From NCBI GenBank assembly GCA_020438445.1, contig JAGQUO010000008.1, forward strand, positions 1 to 46,917: a stretch of DNA of 46,917 bases, in the 5' to 3' direction. A program made the position numbers and the translations under genes. Every line of letters begins with the position of its first letter. Position 1 is the first letter of the stretch. Positions 3,105 to 21,226 of the stretch are shown one piece after another. The notes under the pieces were generated by a model, which saw nothing but the letters and a program-made list of their open reading frames with translations, did no database searches and was not told where the DNA came from. This DNA is from Solirubrobacterales bacterium. GTDB taxonomy: Bacteria > Actinomycetota > Thermoleophilia > Solirubrobacterales > 70-9.

Positions 3105-3107
3105 CGC

Positions 3108-3509
3108 CTACTCCGACAACCCGGCGGCTTCGAGGGCTTCGGCCAGATCCCAATGGACCACGAGCTCGATCAGGAGCCCGGCTTCGATCCGGTATGCGGC
3201 GGCGAAGTCGAAGTCGGCGCCCAGCCCGCTGCTCGCACCGCGAGTCGGAAGACGGAACTTCATCACCACCCAGTCACCGGATTCGCCCACGACCTCGACG
3301 TTCTCGAAACCCAGCTCTCCCCAGGCACCGAACGCGCTCCTGAACTCCTTCGTGACCGCTTCGAGGCCGATGAAGGGTCCCGGCTCGGGCCAGCCCGCCG
3401 GAACGTACAGGCGGGTGTCGGGGTGCCAGAGCTCGGCCCACTCGTCGAGACTCTCGGCGCTGAACCGACGTATCGACTCCAACACCAACTCCACGTTCTG
3501 ATCCGACAT
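3108..3509 (-). CDS. SnoaL/NTF2-like family protein (minus block, copy 1)
   Basis: 133 residues with the NTF2-like pattern: an N-terminal helix (MSDQNVELVLESI), a WHPD motif near residue 28, a beta sheet, then the ALEAAGLSE tail. The stop codon is followed by GCG and the ATG of the next paralogue, so the two should be co-transcribed. The bases before its own ATG, TCGGAGCAGGCG, match the standard junction with CAG in place of the TAG stop, which may be a fossil of a further upstream copy. Ligand unknown. Confidence 0.85.
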   Translation of the reverse strand: MSDQNVELVLESIRRFSAESLDEWAELWHPDTRLYVPAGWPEPGPFIGLEAVTKEFRSAFGAWGELGFENVEVVGESGDWVVMKFRLPTRGASSGLGADFDFAAAYRIEAGLLIELVVHWDLAEALEAAGLSE

Positions 3510-3638
3510 CGCCTGCTCCGAGGGCTGATTGGGAAGGACCGACTCCCTGGCGAGAATAGATGCCCGCTCGTGCCCACGGTTCGGTCAATGCCGCTCGCCG
3601 CCTCCCTGACTCCCGCCGGGGAAGCCGGAGCCGCGAGG

Positions 3639-3712
3639 GGTGAGCGACGGGACTCGAACCCGCGACCGCCTGGACCACAACCAGGAGCTCTACCAACTGA
3701 GCTACGCCCACC
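3639..3712 (-). tRNA. tRNA-His (anticodon GTG)
   Basis: The minus strand folds as a cloverleaf. Acceptor strands GTGGGCG and CGCTCAC pair with one G-U. The anticodon stem CCTGG/CCAGG encloses a loop with GTG. The T arm is GCGGG-TTCGAGT-CCCGT. An extra G at 3712 can pair with the C discriminator at 3639, the G-1:C73 pair diagnostic of tRNA-His. CCA is not encoded. Confidence 0.96.
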
Positions 3713-3724
3713 GCGAGGAAGCGA

Positions 3725-3730
3725 AATCTA
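3725..3730 (-). promoter_or_regulatory. Candidate -10 box (TAGATT) of tRNA-His
   Basis: TAGATT ends 12 nt before the mature 5' end of tRNA-His, allowing a short leader for RNase P removal. The same hexamer occurs before several protein genes here, supporting it as the -10 consensus. No clear -35 was seen. Confidence 0.55.
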
Positions 3731-3776
3731 GCGCGGGCGCCCGCCCGCGGCGCCTCGGCCTGCGGCCGGATGGCGG

Positions 3777-4178
3777 CTAGGAGGCGTTGAGCGCGGCCGC
3801 CCCGCGGATCAATTCGGTGAACGCCTTCTCGTCGAGCACGTCACCCTCGCGCATGTCGATCGCCCGCCTCGCGTTTCCGTCGAGGCTCGCGTTGAAGACG
3901 CCCGCCGGATCGTCGAGCGAGGCCCCCTTCGCGAACGTGAGCTTGACCTTGTCCTTGTAGGTCTCACCCGTGCAGATGATGCCGTCGCACGACCAGACGG
4001 GCACGCCCCGCATGTCGTTGGAGGGCTTTCGCCACTTGACCTCTTCGACGATCTCGGGCCCGGCTTCGAGGATGAGCCGGCGGGCCCGGGCGAGCACCTC
4101 GCCGCGCCAGCCGCCGGTCTCCTCGATCGCCGCGTCGATCTCCTTCGATGCCGTCTCGAACCCCGGTTCTCCTGCCAT
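3777..4178 (-). CDS. DUF1801 domain protein
   Basis: 133 residues from ATG 4178, beginning MAGEPGFETASKEIDAAI, with the conserved EEVKWRKPS core near residue 50 and WSCDGIICTGETYKDKVKLTF after it. This is the DUF1801 (YdhG-like) fold; its biochemical role is not established. An in-frame ATG at 4217 would add 13 residues, but TACGAT six bases before 4178 gives a leaderless start there and the family normally begins here. It lies between two tRNA genes in a region of gene turnover. Confidence 0.85.
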   Translation of the reverse strand: MAGEPGFETASKEIDAAIEETGGWRGEVLARARRLILEAGPEIVEEVKWRKPSNDMRGVPVWSCDGIICTGETYKDKVKLTFAKGASLDDPAGVFNASLDGNARRAIDMREGDVLDEKAFTELIRGAAALNAS

Positions 4179-4184
4179 GGGCCG

Positions 4185-4190
4185 ATCGTA
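4185..4190 (-). promoter_or_regulatory. Candidate leaderless -10 box (TACGAT) of the DUF1801 gene
   Basis: TACGAT is followed by CGGCCC and then ATG at 4178, so transcription would begin at or next to the start codon. Confidence 0.5.
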
Positions 4191-4226
4191 GCGCCGCCCC
4201 GAACCCGGCGGCGGCATCCGGCCTGA

Positions 4227-4436
4227 TCAGCGGTCCTGTCGTCCGTGCTCCCGCATCATCCAGACACCGACGGTGACCGCTGCCGCGGCTCCGATCAGAT
4301 CGGCTCCTCCAGCCGCGATGTACGTGGAGGCCGGGCTGTCCTGATAGTCCGCCCAGAGGTTGCTGAGAGCACCGACGGCGAAATAGACGAGCACCGCGGC
4401 GACGAAGAACATCACTCCAGCGAGGAAGCCGAGCAC
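4227..4436 (-). CDS. Small two-helix membrane protein
   Basis: 69 residues from GTG 4436. Two hydrophobic segments (about residues 2-25, GFLAGVMFFVAAVLVYF, and 42-60, GADLIGAAAAVTVGVW) are separated by a polar loop, followed by a charged tail MREHGRQDR. Reading the frame further upstream enters tRNA-Arg and gives tRNA-derived residues, so a longer protein is unlikely. TACCCT six bases before the GTG supports this start. I do not recognise a family; an inner-membrane location is inferred. Confidence 0.6.
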   Translation of the reverse strand: MLGFLAGVMFFVAAVLVYFAVGALSNLWADYQDSPASTYIAAGGADLIGAAAAVTVGVWMMREHGRQDR

Positions 4437-4442
4437 CGCGGG

Positions 4443-4448
4443 AGGGTA
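4443..4448 (-). promoter_or_regulatory. Candidate leaderless -10 box (TACCCT) of the small membrane protein
   Basis: TACCCT-CCCGCG-GTG: a six-base spacer to the GTG at 4436. It lies 12 bp from the tRNA-Arg 3' end, so read-through from the tRNA is also possible. Confidence 0.4.
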
Positions 4449-4460
4449 ACCCCTGCGGAG

Positions 4461-4534
4461 CGCCCCGGGCAGGACTCGAACCTGCGACATCCGGCTTAGA
4501 AGGCCGGCGCTCTATCCAGCTGAGCTACCGGGGC
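4461..4534 (-). tRNA. tRNA-Arg (anticodon TCT)
   Basis: Cloverleaf on the minus strand: acceptor GCCCCGG/CCGGGGC, D arm with AGCTCAGCTGGATAGAGC, anticodon stem CCGGC/GCCGG with loop CTTCTAA (anticodon TCT), T arm GCAGG-TTCGAGT-CCTGC, discriminator G at 4461. CCA is not encoded. A decayed integrase lies just beyond its 5' end. Confidence 0.96.
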
Positions 4535-4615
4535 GTGTCCCGGGCTTTCGGCTTGCCGATGTCGATTCCTCGCTTCGGGTCGCCGTCGCCCCGAGGGTCG
4601 TTAGCGGCGTCAATC

Positions 4616-5200
4616 TCACGACTTCTGCCCATTCGTGCCCTCGAGCGCCCTATCGAACGCTTCAAGGTGGGCATCGGAAAGGCGTTCACGCCGCTTCACC
4701 GCCCTAGCGTAGACCGTGTGCGGGAAGGTCGGATCGGCCCATCCTCCCTCCTCCGCTATGCAGACCGGATCGTCGTGAAGGGCCGCCCGGAATGCTGGCG
4801 AAGGTGCGCCGGAGCGAGTGCGGGCTGACCCTCGAATTGACCTTCTCGATGCCCGCCCTCTCCAGCTTCTTATTCGCCCGTTTGATCGCTGTCTTGAGAC
4901 GAGGCCGCACGTTGTCGGACCTCTGGGCGTCTCGGGAGTCCACCGTTGTAGCCGCGGGTCGCGAGTACCGGGTCCGAGGCTGCCGTAGCGTCGCTGTGGG
5001 CCTTGTGAGACTTGAGGTCGTCAAGGAGTCCCCAGGGAGATCAACGACCCTCTGAGCCCCCGCATCGGTCTTGGACGAGCTGACGAAGATCGTCCCGTTC
5101 GCGAGATTCACGTCGCCCCAATCGAGCGCGAAGGCTCCCCCACCCGCAGCCCGGCACCGGCGAGGGTCGCCAGGATCGCCCCGTGTCCCACGGACGCCCT
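4616..5200 (-). pseudogene. Tyrosine recombinase (integrase) remnant with several frameshifts
   Basis: Pieces of a phage-type integrase catalytic domain are spread over different frames. In order they read ILATLAGAGLRVGE, then after a shift near 5127 ALDWGDVNLANGTIFVSSSK, then LLDDLKSHKAHSD, then NVRPRLKTAIKRANKKLE and PHSLRRTFAS (the HxxR box), and after a shift near 4797 EEGGWADPTFPHTVYARAVK with the catalytic Tyr, ending at a TGA at 4616. At least four frame changes make it non-functional as read. The N-terminal limit is unclear; upstream to about 5450 nothing convincing was found. The region is visibly less GC-rich than its surroundings. Confidence 0.8.
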
Positions 5201-5478
5201 TCGAGCAACGCCATTGGCTGTTCCGGTTCGGTTCCTTGACCCGTCGCCGGCCCCCTTTGAAGCTGCCGGGTTGCGGAGGATCAGGTCGTTTGTCGCAGAG
5301 GACTACGCGGGGGCGGCTGAGGTTGCTCAGGAGGCACCTATGGCCCTCCGGTTTCTTAGTTCTGAGGGTCCGGCTTCTTTCGCGACGAGGCTCTAGGGCG
5401 GTCGCAAACAACTCCAGCGTTGGGCACCGGGCGGCCCCCCTGGCATGCTGAAGCGTCTCGGGCGATACTGGACGGGCG
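5200..5478. other. Non-coding stretch between integrase remnant and SnoaL block
   Basis: I see no convincing gene on either strand. The composition is more mixed than the neighbouring coding DNA. It may hold decayed N-terminal integrase sequence on minus and, at its right end, the promoter of the plus-strand SnoaL block (GATACT about 9 bases before the ATG at 5479). Confidence 0.5.
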
Positions 5479-5907
5479 ATGTCCGAGGAGAACGTGAACG
5501 CCGCCATGACGCCCCCGGAACGGGAGCTCATCGCCAACCTCCAGCGCATGTTCGATGCCTACAATCGAGGCGATTTCGACCTTGTAGGCGAGTTCGTCGA
5601 TCCCGATGTAGAGCTGGTGACCATTGATCGTCTCACCGAACTGCGCGGAGTCGACGAGTTCCGGGCATGGCTTGAGCCAACGACCGTAGATACCGTCGCG
5701 GCCGAGTTGGAGCAGTTTGAGGTCGCGGGTAACAACGTGCTTGTGCGTCACTTCAATCGAGGCCGTGGCTTGAGGAGCGGTATCAGCCATGAGATTCACT
5801 TCTGGGCCGTCTGGACGTTCAACGAGGCAGGCCTTGTGACCCGGTGCGTAGGTTTCCGCGACGACCAGGAAGCCAACGCCCGCGAAGCCGCCGGGCTGTC
5901 GGAGTAG
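5479..5907 (+). CDS. SnoaL/NTF2-like family protein (plus block, copy 1)
   Basis: 142 residues. It starts MSEENVNAAMTPPERELI, has AYNRGDFDLVGEFVDPDVE near residue 30 (the usual first helix and strand of SnoaL-like domains), RGVDEFRAWL near residue 56, and ends EAAGLSE. The ligand is unknown. It is the first of three co-directional copies separated by only 3 nt each. GATACT and GGACGGGCG lie just before the ATG. Confidence 0.88.
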   Translation: MSEENVNAAMTPPERELIANLQRMFDAYNRGDFDLVGEFVDPDVELVTIDRLTELRGVDEFRAWLEPTTVDTVAAELEQFEVAGNNVLVRHFNRGRGLRSGISHEIHFWAVWTFNEAGLVTRCVGFRDDQEANAREAAGLSE

Positions 5908-5910
5908 GCG

Positions 5911-6318
5911 ATGTCGGAAGCGAATGTCGAGATCGTGCGCTGGCTGTACGAGGAGGGACATGCCAAGCGAACCGTCGATGCGCCCGGCGCTGAGGATCGG
6001 GTCGCCCCCGACTACGTCTTTCATTCTCGGCCCGACTTTCCGAGCCGCCCCGCCTATCGCCTCGATCAGCTGCCCGAGTTCTGGGCCGACCTCGACGCGA
6101 CCTTCGACGACTACAGCCTCACACCGCTGAGCTACGAGCCGATCGGCCCGGCTCACGTCCTGGTCACCATGGAGCAGGCCGCCCGGCTCAGGGGCAGCGA
6201 TCAGCGGCTCTCCGAGCTCGTCTACATGCTCTGGCATCTGACCGACGGGAAGGCGAAGGAGACCTGGACCTCGACGGTCAGGGAGCAGGTCCTCGAAGTC
6301 GCGGGCCTGTCGGAATAG
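5911..6318 (+). CDS. SnoaL/NTF2-like family protein (plus block, copy 2)
   Basis: 135 residues, MSEANVEIVRWLYEEG to LEVAGLSE. A polar insert (residues 20-35) precedes the VAPDYVFHSRPDFPSRP strand and YRLDQLPEFWADL helix. The start is 3 nt after the previous stop, and GGAG in the preceding GLSE codons serves as the ribosome binding site. Function unknown; its sequence differs clearly from copies 1 and 3, so the copies have diverged rather than duplicated recently. Confidence 0.85.
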   Translation: MSEANVEIVRWLYEEGHAKRTVDAPGAEDRVAPDYVFHSRPDFPSRPAYRLDQLPEFWADLDATFDDYSLTPLSYEPIGPAHVLVTMEQAARLRGSDQRLSELVYMLWHLTDGKAKETWTSTVREQVLEVAGLSE

Positions 6319-6321
6319 GAG

Positions 6322-6726
6322 ATGTCGGCGGAGAACGTGGATCGGGCGGAACGTGCCTACGCGGCCTTCAACGAGGGAGACGTGCCGTCAGTCGTCGAGC
6401 ACTTCGACCCCGACATCGCATGGAGTGCCTCCGACGTCTTCTTCGACGAGCCGAGGGCCTATCGCGGCCGTTCGGAGTGGACGGAGGCGTTCCTCCGAGA
6501 GCTCATGGAGCTCTTCGAGGACTACCGGGCCGATCCCGAGGAGATCATCGATGCCGACGACCACCTGGTGGCGATCGTTCGAGTCGGGGGGCACGGGAGA
6601 AGCAGCGGCGCGATGGTGACGGCGCGGGTTGCTCATGTGATCGAGTTCAGAGACGGCCGGATCTCGAGCTTCACCGAGTTCAAGGACGTCGACGAGGCTC
6701 TCCGGGCCGCTGGGATGTCGGAGTAG
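6322..6726 (+). CDS. SnoaL/NTF2-like family protein (plus block, copy 3)
   Basis: 134 residues with a textbook SnoaL opening: AYAAFNEGDVPSVVEHFDPDIAW, then YRGRSEWTEAFLRELMELF, ending ALRAAGMSE. Start 3 nt after copy 2, where AATAGGAG supplies the ribosome binding site. After its TAG the DNA continues GCGACGCCGAGCAG, close to the GCGATGTCGGAG that begins the other copies, as if a fourth start had decayed. Ligand unknown. Confidence 0.88.
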   Translation: MSAENVDRAERAYAAFNEGDVPSVVEHFDPDIAWSASDVFFDEPRAYRGRSEWTEAFLRELMELFEDYRADPEEIIDADDHLVAIVRVGGHGRSSGAMVTARVAHVIEFRDGRISSFTEFKDVDEALRAAGMSE

Positions 6727-10145: not shown

Positions 10146-11684
10146 TCAGGCCGGCGTGATCGGGTTGTGGCGCTCAGTGAAGCGGCGGTCCTTGCCGGCG
10201 GCCTCCGCATAGCGGCGGATCAGCTCCTCCCGGAGATCGTCGGGCTCGATGACCGAGTCGACGATCAGCTCAGACGCCAGATGGAGGATGTCGATGTCCT
10301 CCGCGTATTCGGCGCGCTTGGCCGCGACGAACTCGGCGCGCTCCTCCTCGTCCTCGATCGCCTGGATCTGGTTGTAGTAGACCGCGTTGATGGCGGCCTC
10401 GGGCCCCATCACCGCGATCTGGGCGCCGGGAAGGGCGATGCAGGCATCGGGCTCGAACGCGGGCCCGGCCATCGCGTAGAGGCCGGCGCCGTAGGCCTTG
10501 CGGACGACGACCGAGATCTTCGGGACGGTCGCGGAGCTGACCGCGCTGACCATCTTCGCGCCGTGGCGGATGATGCCCTGCCGCTCGACCGCCTTGCCGA
10601 TCATGAACCCCGGCACGTCGGCGAGGAACAGGAGCGGGACGTTGAAGGCATTGCAGGTGCTGATGAACCGGGCGGCCTTGTCGGATGAGTCGACGAAGAG
10701 CACGCCCCCCTTCTGCTTCGGCTGGTTGGCGACGATGCCGACCGCGCGGCCGTCGAGCCGCGCATAGCCGACCACGAGCTCCTTCGCCCAGCGCGCGTGG
10801 ATCTCGAGGAACGTCCCCGCATCGCAGACCCCCTCGACCAGCCGGCGGATGTCGAACGGCGTCTTCTCGTCGCCGGGCACGACCGCCGACGGCAGCGCCT
10901 CCGGGTCGGGCTCGCCGGGCGCGGCGGCAGGCGGCTCCTCCCGGAAGCTCGTCGGCATGAAGGCCAGGTACTGCTTGGCGATGCCGATCGCCTCCTCGTC
11001 CGTCTTGGCGAGGAAGTGTCCGCATCCGGATACGCCCGTGTGCATGCGCGCGCCGCCCATCTCCTCGAGCGACACCTGCTCGCCGATGACCATCTCCGCC
11101 ATCCGCGGCGAGCCGAGGTACATCGAGGCGTTGCCGTCGCGCATGACGACGACGTCGCAGAACGCCGGGATGTAGGCGCCGCCCGCCGCGGACGGGCCAA
11201 AGAGGACGCAGACCTGCGGGACGCGGCCCGACATCTTCACCTCGTTGTGGAAGATCCGCCCGGCACCGCGCCGGCCCGGGAACATCTGGACCTGGTCGGT
11301 GATCCGAGCGCCGGCGGAGTCGACGAGGTAGATCATCGGCAGCTCGAGGCTCAAGGCCCGCTCCTGGATCCGGATGATCTTCTCGACCGTCTTCGCCCCC
11401 CAGGATCCGGCCTTCACCGTCGGATCGTTGGCCATCAGCGCGACCCGGCGCCCGCCGATCGTACCGAGCCCGGTGACGACGCCGTCGGCCCCGAGGCCGT
11501 CCTTCTCCCAGTTGGCGAGCTGGGCCTCCTCGGAGAAGCTCCCGGCATCGAGCAGCAGTGCCACCCGCTCGCGAACCGGCAGCTTGCCCTGCTCGGCCGT
11601 CTTCTCGTGATGGCGGGCGGGGCCCCCCGCCAGCGCTGCCTCGCGCGCCTCCCCGAGCCCGGTCCGGTCGGCTGTCTCGTCCAT
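10146..11684 (-). CDS. Acyl-CoA carboxylase carboxyltransferase (beta) subunit
   Basis: 512 residues, the usual length for PccB/AccD-type subunits. The N-half crotonase-fold has LVDSAGARITDQ and FGPSAAGGAYIPAF; the C-half has FLADVPGFMIGKAVERQGIIRHGAKM, RKAYGAGLYAMAG and AVMGPEAAINAVYYNQI. It transfers carboxyl from biotin to an acyl-CoA (propionyl-, acetyl- or methylcrotonyl-CoA); the motifs do not decide which. No biotin carboxylase or biotin carrier gene is in the window. Its ATG overlaps the stop of the upstream coiled-coil gene (TGATG), implying coupled translation. Confidence 0.92.
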   Translation of the reverse strand: MDETADRTGLGEAREAALAGGPARHHEKTAEQGKLPVRERVALLLDAGSFSEEAQLANWEKDGLGADGVVTGLGTIGGRRVALMANDPTVKAGSWGAKTVEKIIRIQERALSLELPMIYLVDSAGARITDQVQMFPGRRGAGRIFHNEVKMSGRVPQVCVLFGPSAAGGAYIPAFCDVVVMRDGNASMYLGSPRMAEMVIGEQVSLEEMGGARMHTGVSGCGHFLAKTDEEAIGIAKQYLAFMPTSFREEPPAAAPGEPDPEALPSAVVPGDEKTPFDIRRLVEGVCDAGTFLEIHARWAKELVVGYARLDGRAVGIVANQPKQKGGVLFVDSSDKAARFISTCNAFNVPLLFLADVPGFMIGKAVERQGIIRHGAKMVSAVSSATVPKISVVVRKAYGAGLYAMAGPAFEPDACIALPGAQIAVMGPEAAINAVYYNQIQAIEDEEERAEFVAAKRAEYAEDIDILHLASELIVDSVIEPDDLREELIRRYAEAAGKDRRFTERHNPITPA

Positions 11685-12547
11685 CAGAGGAGCTCGGTCA
11701 GCTTCGAGTCGTCGGTGGAAGGGTCCTCGACCGAATCGACGGACCGCCGGCGCCGCTCGCGCTCCTCGGTGTCGGGGCCGGGCCGCTCGTCGGTGTCCGG
11801 CTCCGCGCCGGGCTGCTCGACGACTTCGGAGACGGTCGTCGGTGCCTCGTCCGGCTCGACGTCCTCCTCCCCGGCAACCTCGGCCTCCTCCTCAGCGAGG
11901 ATCTCGGGGGATTCGACGGCGGCCTCGACCCGCGCCGGCAGATCGAGGTCGCGCTCGCCGGGCCCCTCGATGGCCAGGCGCATCTCGGCGTCGAGCTGTT
12001 CGAGGTTCGCGACCACGTCGCGGCGTTTGCGGACAAGCCCGGCGATCTCCTGTTCGATGCCGCGCGTCCGCTCGGCGGCCTCGGCCTCCGCTTGCCGGAG
12101 CTTCTCGTCGGCCTCGTCGACCTTCGCCTTCGCTTCGGCGGCAGCGGTCTCTGCGGTCACGCGAGCGTGCTCGTCGGCGGCCTTCCGGGTCTCCTCGGAG
12201 TAGGCATCGGCATCGGAGCGCGTCTTCGCGGCCGCCTCATCGGCCTCGCGGCGTTCCCTCTCGGCGTATTGGTCGGCTTCGGCGCGAATTCGCTTCGCCT
12301 CCGCCTCCGCCTCCTGCTTCAGCCCGTCGGCGCTCTCCTGGGCGCTGGCGAGGATCGCCCCGGTGCGATCCCCGACCTCGGCCATCGCCCGCTGGACCAC
12401 GGCGCGGCGCGCCTCGTCGTCCCCGCCGGTCTCGAGCCAGTCGGCGAGCTCGGCGAGATAGGCGTCGACGGCGCGGTGGTCGTAGCCGCCGCGCCGCTCG
12501 GTCGGGAACTTGACGGTCTTCAGCTCTTCGATTCGGTCGGAAGCCAT
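11684..12547 (-). CDS. DivIVA-like coiled-coil protein
   Basis: 287 residues. An N-terminal segment VKFPTERRGGYDHRAVDAYLAELAD resembles the DivIVA membrane-targeting domain. Residues about 45-200 form a long Ala/Glu/Arg coiled coil. The C-terminus is acidic and disordered (EEEAEVAGEEDVEPDE). Such proteins mark poles or septa or organise membrane complexes; that role is inferred. The gene overlaps the carboxyltransferase start by one base, which is odd for a cell-shape protein and suggests a link between the two or simply a shared promoter. TATCCT six bases before the ATG suggests leaderless transcription. Confidence 0.75.
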   Translation of the reverse strand: MASDRIEELKTVKFPTERRGGYDHRAVDAYLAELADWLETGGDDEARRAVVQRAMAEVGDRTGAILASAQESADGLKQEAEAEAKRIRAEADQYAERERREADEAAAKTRSDADAYSEETRKAADEHARVTAETAAAEAKAKVDEADEKLRQAEAEAAERTRGIEQEIAGLVRKRRDVVANLEQLDAEMRLAIEGPGERDLDLPARVEAAVESPEILAEEEAEVAGEEDVEPDEAPTTVSEVVEQPGAEPDTDERPGPDTEERERRRRSVDSVEDPSTDDSKLTELL

Positions 12548-12553
12548 CGGTTC

Positions 12554-12559
12554 AGGATA
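12554..12559 (-). promoter_or_regulatory. Candidate leaderless -10 box (TATCCT) of the DivIVA-like gene
   Basis: TATCCT-GAACCG-ATG. It lies downstream of the dehydrogenase terminator hairpin, so this two-gene unit probably has its own promoter. Confidence 0.5.
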
Positions 12560-12604
12560 GATAAGTGCGCGCGGCAGATCAGCGCGCGACTCGCGAGGCT
12601 CCGC

Positions 12605-12629
12605 CCCGCCGCATCACGGCCGCGGCGGG
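12605..12629 (-). terminator. Hairpin terminator after the hydroxyacyl-CoA dehydrogenase gene
   Basis: CCCGCCGC and GCGGCGGG form an 8-bp stem with a 9-nt loop immediately after the TAG at 12630. There is no U-tract, which is common in GC-rich actinobacteria. Confidence 0.5.
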
Positions 12630-13514
12630 CTACAGCCCGAGCTCGGTCGGGACCGGCTGGTCGCCGGAATAGTCGTAGAACCCCTTCCCGGACTTCCGGC
12701 CGTACCAGCCGGCGGCGACCATCTTCCGCAGCGTCGGCGGGGCCGCGAAACGCCGTTCGCGGTACTCGTCGAACATCACGGTGCCGATCGAGGCGAGCGT
12801 GTCGAGGCCGACGAAGTCCGCGAGGGTCAGCGGGCCCATCGGGTGGTTCGCGCCTGCCTTCATCGCCACGTCGATCTCCTCGATCGAGCCGACGCCCTCC
12901 TCGTAGGCGCGGATCGCGTCGAGCATGTACGGAACCAGCAGGCGGTTGACGATGAAGCCGGTCTTGTCCTTGGCGTGGACCATCGTCTTGCCGAGCTTCT
13001 CGCCGACCTCGAATCCGAGCTTGAGCGCGTCCTCGGAGGTCGTGACCGTCTGGACGACCTCGAGCAGCGGCATGACCTGGGCGGGGTTGAAGAAATGGAG
13101 CCCGAGAAAGCGTTCGGGGCGTGACGTGCTCGCCGCCTGGTCGATCACCGCCAGCGAGGAGGTGTTGGTCGCGAAGTGGGCCTCCTCCTTGACGATCCCG
13201 TCGACCACCTCCCACATCTCCAGCTTCAAGCCGAGGTCCTCGGTGATCGCCTCGATCACCAGGTCGCAGCCCCCGAGAGCGGCGTAGTCGGTGGTGGCCT
13301 CGATCCGGCCGCGGACGGCGTCCGCCTCCTCGCCCTCCATCCGGCCCTTGTCGACCGCGCGCGACAGCTGCTTCTCGATCTTGCCCATGCAGCCGGCGAC
13401 CTTCTCGTCGTCGACCTCCCGCATGACGACGTCCCACCCGGCCTGGGCGCAGATCTGGGTGATCCCGTGACCCATCAGGCCACCGCCGACGACTCCAACC
13501 TTGCTGATTGCCAT
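12630..13514 (-). CDS. 3-hydroxyacyl-CoA (3-hydroxybutyryl-CoA) dehydrogenase
   Basis: 294 residues, the length of single-function FadB2/Hbd enzymes. The Rossmann NAD-binding motif GVVGGGLMGHGI is at residues 7-18, and LHFFNPAQVMPLLEVV carries the catalytic His. NPMGPLTLADFVGLD-like sequence appears as NHPMGPLTLADFVGLD, and WYGRKSGKGFYDY closes the family signature. It oxidises (S)-3-hydroxyacyl-CoA to the 3-keto compound with NAD(P). It belongs with the acyl-CoA genes around it and could feed the crotonyl-CoA enzyme at 33519. GAGGAGAAC precedes the ATG. Confidence 0.94.
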   Translation of the reverse strand: MAISKVGVVGGGLMGHGITQICAQAGWDVVMREVDDEKVAGCMGKIEKQLSRAVDKGRMEGEEADAVRGRIEATTDYAALGGCDLVIEAITEDLGLKLEMWEVVDGIVKEEAHFATNTSSLAVIDQAASTSRPERFLGLHFFNPAQVMPLLEVVQTVTTSEDALKLGFEVGEKLGKTMVHAKDKTGFIVNRLLVPYMLDAIRAYEEGVGSIEEIDVAMKAGANHPMGPLTLADFVGLDTLASIGTVMFDEYRERRFAAPPTLRKMVAAGWYGRKSGKGFYDYSGDQPVPTELGL

Positions 13515-13990: not shown

Positions 13991-14527
13991 TCAGTCGAGG
14001 AACTTGGCCGCGAGGCGCTCGATCGTGCCGCGGGTCCGCGTCGTGGCGGTCGGCAAGGCCTTCTCGATCGCCCGCAGGTCGAGGTCCGAGTCGCTCATCC
14101 CGCCGCTCGGCAGCCAGAAGAGCTCGCGAGCGCCGAAGGCGAGGCGATCCTGGTCGGTCGCGTGCCCGAGCACCCGCTTGCGAGCGGCCGCGGTCGGCTT
14201 CGCCGCGAGCAGCATCACCTGGAGCTTGCCCTTGGACCCCTTCACGTCCTCGGCGGGAAACGGCTCGGCGACGACGAGCTCCTCGAGCTCGGGCCGGCTC
14301 CGGAGCACGGTGGGAACGGGATATCCGAGACCCGCTTCGAGCTCGGACTCGATCAGCTTCGTCAGCGCGGACTCGGACTCGTTCGACGACTCGAAGACGA
14401 CGTTCCCCGCTGCCTGGAAGGTCTGCGGGGAGTCGAGCCCGATCCGCTCGAACTCAGCCCGGAGATCGTCGTTGGTGATCCGGCGATTGCCGAGGTTCAT
14501 CCCCCTGAGGAACGCGGCGTAGATCAA
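13991..14527 (-). CDS. DUF1697 family protein
   Basis: 178 residues, the standard size for DUF1697. The conserved opening reads (TTG)IYAAFLRGMNLGNRRITNDDL, followed by TFQAAGNVVFES and LVVAEPF. The TTG start overlaps the TGA of the upstream lyase gene as TTGA, supporting it over later starts. The family has a known fold but no settled activity. Position and overlap place it in the thioesterase-lyase operon. Confidence 0.88.
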   Translation of the reverse strand: MIYAAFLRGMNLGNRRITNDDLRAEFERIGLDSPQTFQAAGNVVFESSNESESALTKLIESELEAGLGYPVPTVLRSRPELEELVVAEPFPAEDVKGSKGKLQVMLLAAKPTAAARKRVLGHATDQDRLAFGARELFWLPSGGMSDSDLDLRAIEKALPTATTRTRGTIERLAAKFLD

Positions 14528-15459
14528 CCGCCGGCACCGCCCCAGTCGACCGGTCCGGCCGTCAGCAGATGAGCGCCGAGCGGGCGCCCGAGGACGGACT
14601 GGACCTCCCGGGAGGCTGCGAGCAATCCCTCGAGGTCGATTCCGGTCTCGATCCCCATCTCGTGCAGGAGCGAGACGAGGTCCTCGGAGGCGATGTTCCC
14701 GGTCGATCCGGCAGGGACCGGACAGCCCCCGAGCTCGCCGAAGCTCGACTCGAACGAGTCGATCCCCTGGCCGAGCGCGGCCACGGCGTTGGCGATGCCC
14801 TGCCCCCGCGTGTTGTGGAAGTGGGCGGTCAACTCGGGTCCCTCATCGCCGCCGAGCAAGGCGGTCATCCGCTCGTAGAAGCCGTCGACCTGGAGCGGGT
14901 TGGCCATCCCGGTGGTGTCGCCGAAGCCGATTTCGGTGCAGCCGGCGGCGATCAGGCGCTCGGCGATCGCCTGCACCCGCTCAGGCGGGACCTCGCCCTC
15001 GTAGGGGCAACCGAAGCTCGTCGCGATCACGCCCTCGCAGCGAAGGCCCTCGGCCCGCGCCGTCTCCAGCACCCGCTCGAGCCCCACCAGGGACTCTTCG
15101 ATCGAGCGGTTGACGTTCCTGCGGTTGTGGGTCTCGGAGGCCGAGAGGAAGACGCTGATCTCGTCGAAGCGGTCGCGGTGACGAAGCGCGTTCTCGAGCC
15201 CGCGCTCGTTCGGGATCAGGACCGAGAAGGAGACGCCCTCGGGACGCTCGAGCGCCCCGAGCACCTCGGGACCGTCGGCGAGTTGGGGGATCACATCGGC
15301 GCGGACGAACGAGGTGACCTCGATCCGCTCGAGGCCGGCGGCGATCAGCATCTCGATCAGCCGCACCTTGTCGGCGGTGGCGATCACCTCGGGCTCGTTC
15401 TGAAAGCCGTCGCGCGGGCCGACCTCGCGGATCCGAGCGCTGTCGGGGTAGGCGGGCAT
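14524..15459 (-). CDS. mvaB: Hydroxymethylglutaryl-CoA lyase-like enzyme (HMGL/DRE-TIM family)
   Basis: 311 residues, a TIM barrel. REVGPRDGFQNEP (residues 11-23) carries the catalytic Arg/Asp, AHFHNTRGQG the metal-binding HxH, and ELGGCPVPAGSTGNIASEDLV the active-site Cys loop (GGCPxxPGxxGNxxTE). HMG-CoA lyase cleaves HMG-CoA to acetyl-CoA and acetoacetate at the end of leucine breakdown. The set of motifs is complete. It is one base overlapped with the thioesterase stop (TGATG) and with the DUF1697 start (TTGA). Confidence 0.92.
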   Translation of the reverse strand: MPAYPDSARIREVGPRDGFQNEPEVIATADKVRLIEMLIAAGLERIEVTSFVRADVIPQLADGPEVLGALERPEGVSFSVLIPNERGLENALRHRDRFDEISVFLSASETHNRRNVNRSIEESLVGLERVLETARAEGLRCEGVIATSFGCPYEGEVPPERVQAIAERLIAAGCTEIGFGDTTGMANPLQVDGFYERMTALLGGDEGPELTAHFHNTRGQGIANAVAALGQGIDSFESSFGELGGCPVPAGSTGNIASEDLVSLLHEMGIETGIDLEGLLAASREVQSVLGRPLGAHLLTAGPVDWGGAGG

Positions 15460-15884
15460 CAGGACTCGGGGACGTTGACCACGCGGCGCTGATGGGTACC
15501 GACCCCGATCGTCCGATCGCCCTCGGCGACCTCGACGTCGAAGAAGAGCTTGCGGCCGTCGGCGATGTCGGTCAGCTTCGCTCGCACGATGCAGCGCGCC
15601 CCCTCGGCGGCGCCGGCGACGTGCTTGACGCAGACCTCGAACCCGACGGTGGCGTTCCCCTCGGGCAGCGCCTCGTAGGCGAGCACCGCACAGGTCCGCT
15701 CCATCATCGCGATCATTCCAGGGGTCGACAGAACCGCCGCTCCGAGCGTCCCGCCGACGTCGGTGAGAAGCGGACCGGTCACCTCGAACTCGTCACTGCG
15801 CTCGGCGCCCGGCTCGAGCGGGGGCGCCCCGGGCCCGCCGCGCTCAGGTTCGGGCATGTCCTGGGAGTCGGCGGGTCCGCTCAT
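15459..15884 (-). CDS. Hotdog-fold acyl-CoA thioesterase (FlK-like)
   Basis: 141 residues. The hotdog core carries STPGMIAMMERTCAVLA, then TVGFEVCVKHVAGA. The Thr, Glu and His positions match the Thr/Glu/His set of the fluoroacetyl-CoA thioesterase family (FlK), in which they are catalytic. Here it more likely hydrolyses or polices an acyl-CoA in the adjoining lyase pathway; the substrate is not evident. TATGCT eight bases before the ATG at 15884 supports that start; an in-frame ATG at 15857 preceded by AGGA is an alternative. Confidence 0.85.
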   Translation of the reverse strand: MSGPADSQDMPEPERGGPGAPPLEPGAERSDEFEVTGPLLTDVGGTLGAAVLSTPGMIAMMERTCAVLAYEALPEGNATVGFEVCVKHVAGAAEGARCIVRAKLTDIADGRKLFFDVEVAEGDRTIGVGTHQRRVVNVPES

Positions 15885-15892
15885 CGGGAGGC

Positions 15893-15902
15893 AGCATAGA
15901 CT
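15893..15902. promoter_or_regulatory. Back-to-back overlapping -10 boxes of two divergent operons
   Basis: Only 26 bp separate the two start codons. TAGACT (15897-15902) lies 8 nt before the plus-strand ATG at 15911, and on minus TATGCT (15898 to 15893) lies 8 nt before the ATG at 15884. The boxes overlap at 15897-15898. If both are used, RNA polymerase cannot occupy both at once. Confidence 0.6.
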
Positions 15903-15910
15903 CGCGCCCG

Positions 15911-16633
15911 ATGAGCACCGACAACGCAGCCGCGGGCGACGGCGAGAAGCTCCCTCCGGTCCCGATCATCGGCGGCACCGGGGCGCTCGGATACGGGCTC
16001 GCGGTCCGCTGGGCCAAGGCCGGCATCGAAGTCGTGATCGGCTCGCGCGACCCCGGCCGCGCCGAAGAGGCCGCGGAGAAGGTCCGCGGCACCGTGCCCG
16101 GGGCATCGGTCTCGGGACTCGGTAACGGCGAAGCCGCCGGCCGGGGTCCGGTCGTCTTCCTGACGGTGCCGTTCCGGGCGCAGTCGGAGACCCTGAACAA
16201 CCTTCGCGAGGCGCTCGCGCCGGAGCAGATCCTGGTCGACTGCACCGTGCCGCTGGCCGCGGCCGTCAGCGGCAAGGCCACGCGCTCGCTCGGCGTCTGG
16301 CAGGGATCCGCGGCCGAGCAGGCGCAGGAGATGGTGCCCGAGGGGGTCGCGGTCGTCTCGGCACTTCACACCGTCGGCGCCCCGACGCTCGCCGACCCCG
16401 GCGCTTCGCTGGGTGAGGACGTACTGGTCTGCGGGGACAAGAAGCGTCACAAGGCCCCGGTGGCACGGCTGATCGAGCGGATCGAGGGCCTGCGCGCGGT
16501 CAACGCCGGGCCGCTGGAGATGGCTCGGATCGCCGAGCAGCTGACGCCGCTGCTGATCTCCGTCAACGTTCGCTACAAGGCGCACGCCGGGCTCAGGCTG
16601 GTCAACCTGCCCGAGACGGATCCCTGGGCGTGA
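15911..16633 (+). CDS. npdG: F420H2:NADPH oxidoreductase (NADPH-dependent F420 reductase)
   Basis: 240 residues. The Rossmann NADP motif PIIGGTGALGYGLAVRWAKAG (split here as GGTGALGYGLA and what follows) and IGSRDPGRAEEAA, whose Ser-Arg fits the NADP 2'-phosphate, are typical of Fno/NpdG. The mid-region VVFLTVPFRAQSETL and SALHTVGAPTL follow the family. The enzyme exchanges hydride between NADPH and F420, supplying reduced cofactor. It leads the F420 operon; its TGA overlaps the GTG of cofD. Confidence 0.9.
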   Translation: MSTDNAAAGDGEKLPPVPIIGGTGALGYGLAVRWAKAGIEVVIGSRDPGRAEEAAEKVRGTVPGASVSGLGNGEAAGRGPVVFLTVPFRAQSETLNNLREALAPEQILVDCTVPLAAAVSGKATRSLGVWQGSAAEQAQEMVPEGVAVVSALHTVGAPTLADPGASLGEDVLVCGDKKRHKAPVARLIERIEGLRAVNAGPLEMARIAEQLTPLLISVNVRYKAHAGLRLVNLPETDPWA

Positions 16634-17559
16634 GCGTAGTCGCACTCGCCGGCGGGACCGGCGGAGCGAAGCTCGCCGCCGGCCTGCAGGAGGTCGTGGG
16701 CGATGGGCTCACGGTCATCGCGAACACCGGCGACGACGTCGAGGCCCTCGGGGTCCACGTCTCCCCCGATCCCGACCTCTGCACCTACTGGCTCACGGGC
16801 CTGATCGACGAGGAGCGGGGGTGGGGGATCCGCGGCGACGCCTTCACCGTCTTCGAGCGACTGGTCGAGCTCGGTGCACCGGATTGGTTCGGGCTGTCGG
16901 ACCGGGACCTGGCGACGTGCCTCGAGCGCCGGCGCCGCCTCGACGCAGGCGAGCGCCTGACGCCGATCGCATCCGGCCTCGCCTTCGCACTCGGTGCGGA
17001 GGCGACCGTCCTGCCGATGTGCGACGAGCCGGTCCGGACGAGGGTGCGGACCGACGCCGGGTGGCGCGAGTTCCAGCAGTACCTGATCCAGGATGGTGCC
17101 GGGCCGGCGATCGAGGAGGTCGACTTCGCGGGGATCTCGGATGCACGGCCGTCGCCGGAGGCGGAGGCCGCGATCGAGGGTGCGGAGGCGATCGTCATCG
17201 GCCCCTCCAACCCGGTGATCTCGATCGGGCCGATCCTTGCGGTTCCGGGGATGAGCGCGCTGCTCGCCGCCGCCGAAGCGCCCGTCGTCGCCGTCAGCCC
17301 CTTCGTCGCCGGCGAGGTGATCAAGGGTCCCACGGACAAGTTCATGCGAGCGATCGGCCGCGAGCCGTCGGCGGCCGGCGTCGCCTCCGCGTACCGCGGG
17401 GTGATCGACGGGCTCGTCGTCGACGCCGCCGACCCCGATCCGGATCCGGACGAGGACGGCGTCGCGACGACGCGTCTCGACACGCTGATGAGCGATGCGC
17501 CCGCGCGGCGGCGCGTGGCCGAGGCGACGCTCGGCTTCGCGACGTCGCTGCGAGACTGA
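16630..17559 (+). CDS. cofD: 2-phospho-L-lactate transferase (CofD/FbiA)
   Basis: 309 residues from GTG 16630. ALAGGTGGAKLAAGLQ at the N-terminus is the CofD nucleotide loop, followed by VIANTGDDVEALGVHVSPDPD (in two parts: NTGDD and HVSPD), WGIRGDAFTVFERL, and IVIGPSNPVISIGPIL. CofD couples the activated 3-carbon acid (lactyl- or enolpyruvyl-diphospho-guanosine) to Fo, giving (dehydro-)F420-0. GTGA overlap with the upstream gene and 10-bp spacing to cofC indicate one transcript. Confidence 0.96.
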   Translation: MSVVALAGGTGGAKLAAGLQEVVGDGLTVIANTGDDVEALGVHVSPDPDLCTYWLTGLIDEERGWGIRGDAFTVFERLVELGAPDWFGLSDRDLATCLERRRRLDAGERLTPIASGLAFALGAEATVLPMCDEPVRTRVRTDAGWREFQQYLIQDGAGPAIEEVDFAGISDARPSPEAEAAIEGAEAIVIGPSNPVISIGPILAVPGMSALLAAAEAPVVAVSPFVAGEVIKGPTDKFMRAIGREPSAAGVASAYRGVIDGLVVDAADPDPDPDEDGVATTRLDTLMSDAPARRRVAEATLGFATSLRD

Positions 17560-17569
17560 GGCAGAACAG

Positions 17570-18226
17570 ATGCGCGCCACCGCAATCGTCCCCGTCAAGC
17601 ACTTCGACCGCGCCAAGAGCCGGCTGTCGGAGAGTGCGGCCGCGGCTCACCGGCCGGAGCTGGCGAAGGCCATGCTCTCCGACGTCCTGCTCGGGTTGCG
17701 GGAATCACGCCTGGTCAACCGGATCGTCGTCGTCACCGGCGAGCCCGAGGCTCGCGAGGTCGCCGAGCGGGGTGGCGCCGAGCTCATCGACGATCCCGAC
17801 GACGTCGGCCATTCCGAGGCGGCGATGATCGGCATCGCCGACGCAATGGCGCGCGGCACCGAGTGCGTCGCCCTCGTGCCCGGAGACACGCCGCTGCTCG
17901 ACGGGGTCGAGCTCGACCGCGAGCTCGATGCCCAGGCTCCGGGAGTGGCCGTCATCCCCGATCATCACGGCACCGGCACGAACGGCCTGATCCTCTCCCC
18001 TCCCGACGTGATCGAGCCGTCCTTCGGCCCGGACAGCCGCGCCCGCCACCTGGAGCTCGCCCGCGCCGCGGGTGCGCGATGCCGGATTGCGACGGTCCGC
18101 TCGATGGCGCTCGACCTCGACACCGGCGACGACCTCCGAGAGCTCCTCGCATCGCTCGATTTCGACCCCGCGCGCGCCCCCGCCACCGCGGCGGCGCTCG
18201 AGGAGCTCGGCATCGACGCGACGTGA
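17570..18226 (+). CDS. cofC: Phospholactate/phosphoenolpyruvate guanylyltransferase (CofC/FbiD)
   Basis: 218 residues from ATG 17570, with AGAACAG before it. AIVPVKHFDRAKSRLSE is the CofC nucleotide-binding start, VVVTGEPEAREVAERGGAE the second strand, and VALVPGDTPLLDG the metal-binding loop; HHGTGTNGLILSPP binds the acid moiety. In actinobacteria the homologue FbiD uses phosphoenolpyruvate rather than 2-phospholactate; that is likely but not readable here. It overlaps cofE by GTGA. Confidence 0.94.
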   Translation: MRATAIVPVKHFDRAKSRLSESAAAAHRPELAKAMLSDVLLGLRESRLVNRIVVVTGEPEAREVAERGGAELIDDPDDVGHSEAAMIGIADAMARGTECVALVPGDTPLLDGVELDRELDAQAPGVAVIPDHHGTGTNGLILSPPDVIEPSFGPDSRARHLELARAAGARCRIATVRSMALDLDTGDDLRELLASLDFDPARAPATAAALEELGIDAT

Positions 18227-18969
18227 GCGGGCCGATCACGGTCCTGCCGATCTCCGGAATCCCGGAGATCGAGGCGGGGGCGGACCTCGGGAGGGCGATC
18301 GCCTCCGCTGCGGAGCCGACGGACGGGGACATCTTCGTCGTCGCCCAGAAGGTCGTGTCGAAAGCCGAGGGACGCGGTCGCCGTCTCGCGGACGTCGAGC
18401 CCTCCCCGCGCGCGATCGAGCTCGGCCACGACCTCGACAAGGACCCGCGCCTGGTCGAGCTGATCCTCGCCGAATCGGTACGGATCGTGCGCGATGAACG
18501 GGTCCTCATCGTCGAGACCGCCGGCGGTCTGATCTGCGCCAACGCCGGCATTGACTCCTCGAACGTGGGGGCCGCCGGAGAGGTCCTGCTGCTCCCCGAG
18601 GACCCCGACGCCTCCGCGCAGCGTCTGCGGGCCGAGATCGGGGCGGCGGCGGGTGGCCGGGTCGGCGTCGTCATCAGCGACAGCTTCGGCCGCCCCTGGC
18701 GAGTCGGTCAGACCGACGTCGCGATCGGCTGCGCGGGCGTCCGTCCGGTGGACGACTGGCGCGGCCGTCCCGATCGCGACGGACGGGAGCTCGCCGCCAC
18801 CGAGATCGCCGTAGCGGATCAGCTCGCCGGGGCCGCGGACCTCAGCCGCGACAAGGCGGCCGGGGTGCCGGCCGTCCTGATCCGCGGCCGGCCCGACCTG
18901 GTGACGGCCGAGGACGGACCGGGCGCCCGCTCCCTGCAGCGCCCGCGCGATCAGGACCTGTTCCGCTGA
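18223..18969 (+). CDS. cofE: F420-0:gamma-glutamyl ligase (CofE), without the FbiB reductase domain
   Basis: 248 residues from GTG 18223. VAQKVVSKAEGR, LILAESVRIVR, ICANAGIDSSNV and VVISDSFGRPWRVGQTDVAIG (SDSFGRPWR core) are the CofE hallmarks. The enzyme adds the gamma-linked glutamates of the F420 tail using GTP. Mycobacterial FbiB is about twice as long because a C-terminal FMN domain reduces dehydro-F420-0; that domain is absent here and no nitroreductase gene follows. It converges with fbiC. Confidence 0.95.
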   Translation: MSGPITVLPISGIPEIEAGADLGRAIASAAEPTDGDIFVVAQKVVSKAEGRGRRLADVEPSPRAIELGHDLDKDPRLVELILAESVRIVRDERVLIVETAGGLICANAGIDSSNVGAAGEVLLLPEDPDASAQRLRAEIGAAAGGRVGVVISDSFGRPWRVGQTDVAIGCAGVRPVDDWRGRPDRDGRELAATEIAVADQLAGAADLSRDKAAGVPAVLIRGRPDLVTAEDGPGARSLQRPRDQDLFR

Positions 18970-19000: not shown

Positions 19001-21226
19001 TCAGTAGGTCTCGAGCACCTCGTAGAGAGTCGATCGCTGCGCCGGCGTCCGCCCCGCGGCCCGGGCGGCGCCGATCAGATCCTCCGGCTCGAGCCGGGAA
19101 CCGTGCTGAGAGCCGGCCATGCGGGAGATGCTCTCCTCCATCAGCGTGCCGCCGAGGTCGTTCACCCCCCAGCGGAGTGCCTCGGTCGCGGCGCCGAGGC
19201 CCATCTTCACCCAGCTCGCCTGCAGGTTCGTGATCGTGCGCCCGAGCGCGAGCCGGAAGACGGCCGTGTGCTTGAGGTTCTCGGCGTCGGAGATCTCCTC
19301 GATGCCGTGGGTCCGCCCGAGCATCGTGTGGTAGGGGATGAAGCTGAGCGGCACGAACTCGGTGATCCCCCCGGTCCGCTCCTGGACGGCGCGGACCACC
19401 CGCATGTGCTCGGCCAACTCTTCCGGCGTCTCGATGTGACCGAACATGACGGTCGACGTGGAGCGGAGCCCGGCGCGGTGCGACGCCTCGATGATCTCCA
19501 CCCAGCGGGCGGCGGGGAGCTTGTTCGGCGAGATCCGGTTCCGGACACCGTCTTCGAGCACCTCCGCGGCCGTGCCCGGAGTCGAGCCGAGTCCGCAGTC
19601 GCGCAGGTAGGCGAAGACGTAGTCGGGGTCCCTGCCCGAGCGCTCGCACATGAAGTGGACCTCCATCGGCGAGTAGGCATGGAGGTGGATCTCCGGTGCG
19701 ACCTCCTTGGCCCGGCGCAGCCACGCGCCGTAGTGCTCGAGCGTGTAGTCCGGATGGATGCCGCCCTGCATGCAGATCTCGGTGGCCCCGAACTCGACCG
19801 CCTCGCGGATCCGCTCGGCGAACTCACCGGGCTCGATCTCGTAGGCGTCGGGGCTGCGGCTCGTCTGCCCGAACCCGCAGAACGCGCATCCGACGGTGCA
19901 CACGTTCGTGAAGTTGATGTTGCGGTTGACCACGAACGTCGCAACGTCACCGGAGAGCTCGGCGCGGAGCTCGTCCGCCGCCGCACGGATCTCCGCGACC
20001 GCCTCGGGCCGCGTCTCGCGGAACAGCGCGACCAGCTCCTCGCTCGTCAGCTCGTGACCGTCGCGGCCGCGCTCGACGGCTCGGCGGACCGGATCGCCGG
20101 AGCCGAGCGCCGGACCGCCGCCGTTCCCGTTCGCGGACGCGGCGGCGAAGCCCGGCCGCCGAGGCAGGAACGTCGGGTACCGGGCCGCGAGGACGTCGAG
20201 GACCCCGGGGTCGACCCACTCGTCGTTCATGTACTGCGGGTAGACGCAGAGGCGCTCGGTCAGCGCGTAACCGAGCGGGCGCAGGCGCTTACGGACCTGG
20301 AGCGGGCTCGGGAACGGGTGCTCCGGCGAGATGTGATCGCCGTTGGCCGAGAGCCCGCCGAGGTCGGTGGCGCCGGCGTCGACGAGGTCGATCCACCAGT
20401 CGGAGAGGTTCGGCGGGACCTGGATCCCGACCTCCGGCATCAAGCGCCTGCACTCGGCGACCAGGCGCTTCATGTCCTCCAGGGAGACCGGCTCCGCCCA
20501 CGCCGGCCAATCGATCGTGGATTCGCCGGCGTCGTGCCCGGGGTCGGTCGCCCACCGCTTCTCGCTCGCGTCCGCCGCGATGTCGGCCACCTCGGCGCCG
20601 TAGTAGCGAGGATGGGCGACGAAGTTCTGGAGGATCACCTCCTGGATGTGGCCGTGGCGCCGCTGGATCTCCGCGATCGCCTCGAGCGACGCGACGCGCT
20701 CCTCCTCGGTCTCGCCGATGCCGACGAGGATGCCGCTGGTGAACGGGATCTTCAGCTCGCCGGCCGCCTCGATGGCCTCGATCCTCACCCGCGGATTCTT
20801 GGTCGGCGAGCCGGCGTGGACGGTCTCCATCAGCCGCTCAGCCGCCGACTCCAGCATCAGTCCCTGCGAAGCGGTGACGGTGCGGAGGCGGGCATAGTCC
20901 TCCCGGCTCGCGACGCCGACGTTCGTGTGGGGGAGCAGCCCCCGTTCGAGCGCCTGCTCGCAGGCCCAGCGCACGTAGGAGGTGAAGTCCTCGTGCCCCC
21001 ACCCGCGGAGCCGTTCCGCCACCAGCGGATTCACCTCGGGCCGCTCCCCGGTGAGCACGAGCAGCTCCTTGACGTTCCGGCGCGAGGCCGCATCGAGCCG
21101 TTCGAGGACCTCCTCGGGCGGATGCACGTGTGCCTGGTGGGTCGCGAACGCGCAGTACTTGCAGTAGCAGCGGCACGTCCGCGAGAGCGACAGCGTCAGG
21201 TTCCGGGAGAAGGTGACGCGACGCAT
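19001..21226 (-). CDS. fbiC: FO synthase FbiC (CofG-CofH fusion, dual radical SAM)
   Basis: 741 residues from ATG 21226. The CofG half has the radical SAM Cys18-x3-Cys22-x2-Cys25 motif, then VLTGERPEV and GILVGIGETEEER. The CofH half has NINFTNVCTVGCAFCGF with cysteines at about 443, 447 and 450, then CMQGGIHPDYTLEHY and TSTVMFGHIET. Together they build the deazaflavin FO from tyrosine and the ribityl-pyrimidine. A GTG at 21235 would add three residues, but TAGCGT seven bases before 21226 favours the ATG. It converges with cofE, completing the F420 set within 5.4 kb. Confidence 0.97.
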   Translation of the reverse strand: MRRVTFSRNLTLSLSRTCRCYCKYCAFATHQAHVHPPEEVLERLDAASRRNVKELLVLTGERPEVNPLVAERLRGWGHEDFTSYVRWACEQALERGLLPHTNVGVASREDYARLRTVTASQGLMLESAAERLMETVHAGSPTKNPRVRIEAIEAAGELKIPFTSGILVGIGETEEERVASLEAIAEIQRRHGHIQEVILQNFVAHPRYYGAEVADIAADASEKRWATDPGHDAGESTIDWPAWAEPVSLEDMKRLVAECRRLMPEVGIQVPPNLSDWWIDLVDAGATDLGGLSANGDHISPEHPFPSPLQVRKRLRPLGYALTERLCVYPQYMNDEWVDPGVLDVLAARYPTFLPRRPGFAAASANGNGGGPALGSGDPVRRAVERGRDGHELTSEELVALFRETRPEAVAEIRAAADELRAELSGDVATFVVNRNINFTNVCTVGCAFCGFGQTSRSPDAYEIEPGEFAERIREAVEFGATEICMQGGIHPDYTLEHYGAWLRRAKEVAPEIHLHAYSPMEVHFMCERSGRDPDYVFAYLRDCGLGSTPGTAAEVLEDGVRNRISPNKLPAARWVEIIEASHRAGLRSTSTVMFGHIETPEELAEHMRVVRAVQERTGGITEFVPLSFIPYHTMLGRTHGIEEISDAENLKHTAVFRLALGRTITNLQASWVKMGLGAATEALRWGVNDLGGTLMEESISRMAGSQHGSRLEPEDLIGAARAAGRTPAQRSTLYEVLETY

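What the first reader, a model, noticed from the sequence alone, without database searches (positions are those of the whole stretch)
15884..15911. Two divergent operons share 26 bp with overlapping -10 boxes
TAGACT on plus and TATGCT on minus overlap by two bases, and each is 8 nt from its ATG. The thioesterase/HMG-CoA-lyase operon and the F420 operon would thus be mutually exclusive for polymerase binding, a built-in switch between acyl-CoA degradation and F420 supply without needing a regulator.
Basis: partly seen in the sequence, partly recalled or inferred. Interest (0 to 1): 0.62.

Follow-up and report, generated by a model that had tools for sequence, protein, structure and literature searches.

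The report
Shared promoter between two leaderless operons
Two back-to-back bacterial operons, one making the cofactor F420 and one for acyl-CoA breakdown, probably start from a single tiny two-way promoter. The layout is known and recurs between many unrelated gene pairs in this group, so it looks like compact genome design rather than a dedicated metabolic switch.

Summary
The gap is 26 nt, with TAGACT (+) and TATGCT (-) each 8 nt from an ATG and sharing the dinucleotide TA at 15897-15898. Comparison says both boxes are real -10 elements of leaderless genes: TANNNT boxes peak 6-10 nt before start codons in the genus; 84 of 94 npdG relatives and 63 of 69 divergent partner genes carry one; three species of the genus keep 24 of 26 gap bases. 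The arrangement matches a known kind, the bidirectional promoter with a shared -10 element, '23 bp' class (TSSs inferred, not mapped).

The switch interpretation is not supported. In the order, 45 of 60 genomes with both boxes have them separated by 2-99 bp. The shared form turns over on the tree, the partner's first gene changes, and the same architecture sits between many unrelated gene pairs. Published E. coli tests found negligible polymerase competition at basal activity. The excess of shared-TA promoters (15 of 60) is no larger than base symmetry predicts: one A four bases upstream of TA makes a reverse box. A perfect 10-bp inverted repeat over both start codons is unique in the genome and broken in a sister species, so probably incidental.

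The parts
15897..15902 (+). -10 box TAGACT of npdG operon, 8 nt before ATG
   Evidence: genome-wide N=6-11 clustering, mode 8; TAGACT or variant in nearly all npdG relatives
15893..15898 (-). -10 box TATGCT of the thioesterase/HMG-CoA lyase operon, 8 nt before ATG
15897..15898 (.). shared TA dinucleotide: dyad centre of the bidirectional promoter
   Evidence: 15 of 60 relatives with both boxes share it
15885..15910 (.). 26-nt intergenic gap, 24 of 26 columns invariant in the genus
15909..15911 (+). predicted transcription start region of npdG operon (canonical +1, or the A of ATG)
   Evidence: inference from box position; not mapped
15884..15886 (-). predicted transcription start region of thioesterase operon
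   Evidence: inference from box position; not mapped
15459..15884 (-). FlK-like thioesterase, 141 aa (PF22636)
14524..15459 (-). hydroxymethylglutaryl-CoA lyase (NF004283, PF00682)
13991..14527 (-). DUF1697 protein, next in the minus operon
15911..16633 (+). npdG, NADPH-dependent F420 reductase (TIGR01915)
16630..17559 (+). cofD, 2-phospho-L-lactate transferase (TIGR01819)
17570..18226 (+). cofC, 2-phospho-L-lactate guanylyltransferase (TIGR03552)
18223..18969 (+). cofE, F420-0:gamma-glutamyl ligase (TIGR01916)
15879..15888 (+). left arm of perfect 10-bp inverted repeat (GCTCATCGGG) over the minus start codon; probably incidental
15907..15916 (+). right arm (CCCGATGAGC) over the plus start codon

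Best explanation
The 26-bp gap is a minimal bidirectional promoter. One TA dinucleotide serves as the first two bases of the -10 element on both strands (shared-TA layout; TSSs about 23 bp apart at canonical spacing, 27 if each starts at its ATG). Both first genes are leaderless: RNA polymerase binds in one of two orientations, opens the DNA on one side of the TA, and starts at or within 2 nt of the start codon. Shown by comparison: both boxes, their spacing to the starts, their conservation in the genus and their presence in relatives. Inferred: TSS positions, -35 independence and mutual exclusion of bound polymerases. The arrangement is most simply a product of promoter symmetry and genome compaction. 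At ordinary promoter strength the two operons are expected to fire largely independently, at a ratio set by the sequence.
For: Genome-wide leaderless signature: and for three genomes. Box 5-11 nt before the start in 84 of 94 npdG relatives and in 63 of 69 divergent partners, against about 2.5% expected per start codon. 24 of 26 gap bases invariant in three species of the genus, while the adjacent 5' coding sequence has many substitutions and indels. Shared TA in 15 of 60 relatives with both boxes, against a mean of 0.68 genomes at each other offset from 1 to 60; base composition predicts about a 45-fold preference for offset 0, and about 22-fold is seen. Aligning 84 npdG and 63 partner promoters on their boxes shows no -35 conservation. 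The same 8/8-spaced shared-TA pattern occurs at 38 places in 36 of 201 order genomes, against 3 for the reversed control and roughly 5 expected. 16 of 20 inspected lie exactly between two coding starts of varied genes. Published bidirectional-promoter class with 23-bp TSS spacing and low basal competition.
Against: No TSS data exist for this organism, a MAG. TANNNT is a short motif. An 8-nt spacing to ATG puts the start codon 2 nt beyond the canonical +1, so a 1-2 nt leader or a TSS slightly upstream is possible. The 23-bp class was described in other bacteria, and its behaviour in this order is unknown.
Confidence: 0.83

Rival explanations
1. Regulator-free metabolic switch: polymerase bound for one operon shuts off the other, so the cell toggles between acyl-CoA degradation and F420 supply.
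For: Shared -10 bases make simultaneous open complexes impossible (inference); overlap kept in all three genus members.
Against: Boxes are separated by 2-99 bp in 45 of 60 relatives with both boxes, including other genera of the family. The first partner gene changes between SDR, FlK and HMG-CoA lyase. The architecture is generic to unrelated gene pairs. E. coli bidirectional promoters show little competition at basal level. Exclusion alone sets a ratio and gives no bistability.
Confidence: 0.07
2. Only one of the two boxes is a working promoter and the other is a chance by-product of -10 symmetry.
For: A reverse box needs only one A four bases upstream of TA (probability about 0.16).
Against: Both start codons sit at the leaderless distance from their box. 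In relatives with separated boxes each gene keeps its own box. No alternative box or ribosome-binding site is seen for either gene in the window.
Confidence: 0.08
3. The perfect 10-bp inverted repeat GCTCATCGGG-N18-CCCGATGAGC centred on the shared TA is an operator for a dimeric regulator of both operons.
For: Perfect repeat in the window and in L033, centred exactly on the TA.
Against: Unique in the genome. Broken in L034 by a 1-nt deletion and ATGGGC. The arms equal the start context CCCG-ATG-AGC used twice. Not kept in the other genera read.
Confidence: 0.04

Closest known systems
Bidirectional promoters with a shared -10 element (Warman, Grainger, Wade and co-workers; PMC12825309, PMC10268837; 23-bp class)
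   Same: Pseudo-symmetrical -10 elements on opposite strands with shared key bases; offset corresponds to 23 bp between canonical TSSs; drives two mRNAs
   Different: Both transcripts are predicted to be leaderless, so the whole intergenic region is the promoter; no TSS mapping; an actinobacterial order rather than Enterobacteriaceae
Leaderless genes with TANNNT about 12 bp upstream of the start codon (Actinobacteria; PMC3160421, PMC3898074)
   Same: TANNNT, A of the box 13 nt before ATG (within the 8-14 nt range given in PMC3160421), no Shine-Dalgarno
   Different: Two such genes back to back sharing one TA
Regulated overlapping divergent promoters (for example PsoxS/soxR in PMC12825309)
   Same: Overlapping divergent promoters between two genes
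   Different: No regulator gene adjacent to the gap and no conserved operator found here

Membership tests
Bidirectional promoter (shared -10) | -10 elements on opposite strands overlap in key positions | tested here: met
   TA 15897-15898 common to TAGACT (+) and TATGCT (-)
Bidirectional promoter (shared -10) | divergent TSSs 7-25 bp apart | not testable with these tools
   Predicted 23 bp with canonical spacing (15909/15886) or 27 bp if both start at ATG; no RNA data
Bidirectional promoter (shared -10) | changing the shared -10 abolishes both transcripts | not testable with these tools
   Experiment needed
Leaderless genes (TANNNT class) | TANNNT at leaderless distance from the start codon, enriched genome-wide | tested here: met
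   8 nt for both genes
Leaderless genes (TANNNT class) | no Shine-Dalgarno upstream of the start | tested here: met
   15885-15910 read on both strands: no purine-rich SD at 5-10 nt from either ATG
Leaderless genes (TANNNT class) | mRNA 5' end at the start codon | not testable with these tools
   No transcript data
Conserved mutual-exclusion switch | overlap maintained with this gene pair in relatives | tested here: not met
   Maintained in the genus (3 species) but 45 of 60 relatives with both boxes are separated
Regulator operator (palindromic) | palindrome conserved between species or repeated in a regulon | tested here: not met
   Single site in genome, broken in L034

The most novel reading that the evidence does not exclude
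Solirubrobacterales use a recurrent 'double-leaderless' bidirectional promoter, in which a 24-31 bp intergenic region with one shared TA is the complete control region of two operons, and polymerase competition at it sets a fixed expression ratio, here between F420 biosynthesis and acyl-CoA catabolism.
Probability: 0.15. Interest if true: 0.5.

Novelty: new member of a known kind. Interest (0 to 1): 0.3.

Why it matters
It shows how far a bacterial promoter can be compressed: 26 bp for two operons with no leaders. It also gives a quantitative reason, promoter symmetry, why such overlaps recur without a regulatory purpose. Many comparable sites across one order offer a natural test set for whether polymerase competition at shared -10 elements matters when both genes are leaderless.

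Tried and rejected
The generic sigma-70 and terminator scan found nothing. The inverted repeat as operator was rejected. I looked for a -35 element by aligning 84 plus and 63 minus promoters on their boxes; none was conserved. I asked whether the 18-bp class (TANNNTA) is avoided: 14 places against 17 for its reversed control and about 1.6 expected from very few counts, inconclusive. The background estimate rests on 6 chance hits, so the roughly 8-fold enrichment is rough. The original 2021 bidirectional-promoter paper is not held, so its content was taken from follow-up papers.

Full report
What is there. The minus-strand FlK-like thioesterase starts at 15884 and the plus-strand npdG at 15911, leaving 26 nt: CGGGAGGCAGCATAGACTCGCGCCCG. 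TAGACT (15897-15902, +) and TATGCT (15898-15893, -) share TA, and each lies 8 nt before its ATG. The minus side continues with HMG-CoA lyase and a DUF1697 protein, and the plus side with cofD, cofC and cofE. The genome is a metagenome-assembled actinobacterium whose nearest named records are Solirubrobacterales-type MAGs.

Are the boxes real? In the window's own genome, TAGACT followed by ATG within 24 nt occurs 28 times. In 26 of these the spacing is 6-11 nt, with mode 8. In a 400-kb sample of a sister species TANNNT peaks at 6-10 nt before start codons, and about 18% of genes have such a box. Two further genomes of the order give the same peak. This is the leaderless-gene signature described for Actinobacteria (PMC3160421). 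Among 94 distinct npdG relatives 84 have a box 5-11 nt before the start (mode 8). Of 69 with a recognised divergent partner, 63 have a box before the partner. Chance would give about 2.5% per start codon. The three species of the genus keep 24 of 26 gap bases while the neighbouring 5' coding sequence has many substitutions and indels. I therefore take both boxes as working -10 elements. TSSs are inferred.

Geometry. With the canonical 7 bp from the last base of the box to +1, the two TSSs would be 23 bp apart (15909 and 15886). That is one of the common distances for bidirectional promoters with a shared -10 element (PMC12825309). With starts at the A of each ATG it would be 27 bp. No conserved -35 appears in 84 plus or 63 minus promoters aligned on their boxes.

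Conservation of the overlap. Of 60 distinct relatives with a box on both sides, 15 share the TA and 45 have boxes 2 to 99 bp apart; gaps range from 24 to 122 nt. On an npdG tree the shared state needs at least 9 changes when only shared and separate rows are counted (quick tree). It therefore turns over, by repeated gain, loss or both; the tree cannot say which. The divergent first gene is SDR, FlK or HMG-CoA lyase. Several SDR-partnered genomes (L007, L009) carry exactly the same AGCATAGACT core as the window, so the promoter core probably outlived a change of first gene (inference).

Why offset 0 is common. Given a TANNNT box, a reverse box sharing its TA needs only an A four bases upstream (about 0.16), whereas an independent box at any other given place has probability about 0.0035. 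The ratio is about 45. Observed: 15 genomes at offset 0 against 0.68 per other offset from 1 to 60, about 22-fold. Symmetry alone can explain the excess, and no selection for switching is needed.

How general. The exact 8/8-spaced pattern CAT-N8-ANNNTANNNT-N8-ATG occurs at 38 places in 36 of 201 genomes of the order, with 3 for the reversed control. A rough background from implausible spacings predicts about 5. Of 20 of these fetched and checked, 16 lie exactly between two coding sequences that begin at those ATGs, with diverse proteins on either side. Only three of the 38 are at npdG. The architecture is generic, though not frequent in any one genome.

Mechanism. RNA polymerase can bind the site in only one orientation at a time (inference from its size). 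Whether that matters was tested for five E. coli bidirectional promoters: at basal activity there was little competition, and one direction repressed the other only when activated (PMC12825309). Without a regulator the site should set a ratio, not a switch. No regulator gene adjoins the gap. The inverted repeat over both start codons is unique in the genome and broken in a sister species; its arms equal the start context CCCG-ATG-AGC used twice.

Verdict. Real and neatly built, but a new member of a known kind. The switch reading is unlikely. The most interesting residue is the recurrent double-leaderless, shared-TA promoter across the order.

Noticed in passing
window 19001-21226 (-): A fused CofG/CofH-type radical SAM protein (FbiC-like; Radical_SAM plus CofH_C) lies convergently after cofE, with its own TANNNT box (TAGCGT, 7 nt), so the F420 genes form one cluster of two transcription units.
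   Followed up: partly
L006, L007, L009, L012, L016-L018 and others: In many relatives the first gene of the divergent operon is an SDR-family dehydrogenase (MRLEGRKALVTGG...), with FlK and in some HMG-CoA lyase further along; the window's genus lacks it at this place, so FlK now sits directly at the promoter.
   Followed up: partly
L180-L199 (e.g. L191, L194, L199): 26-nt gaps with shared-TA boxes between other divergent genes (by eye: RecO-like/glutaredoxin-like, CaiB-like/phosphoesterase, FabD-like/unknown); two such sites recur in several related genomes (genera coded g11 and g17).
   Followed up: partly
window 2703-6726: Several SnoaL-like small proteins clustered on both strands (four genes above the Pfam cut-off) beside a DUF1801 protein.
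   Followed up: no
window 10146-13514 and 41948-43948: Acyl-CoA carboxylase carboxyltransferase, 3-hydroxyacyl-CoA dehydrogenase and methylmalonyl-CoA mutase genes: the wider neighbourhood is rich in acyl-CoA catabolism.
   Followed up: no
L055 (CAMCUD010000002.1), L057 (CAJCHW010000041.1): Records titled Bifidobacterium breve and Chlamydiae carry npdG genes 62-63% identical to the window's; L055 groups inside the order on the npdG tree and has a FlK partner and shared-TA promoter. The titles look wrong.
   Followed up: partly
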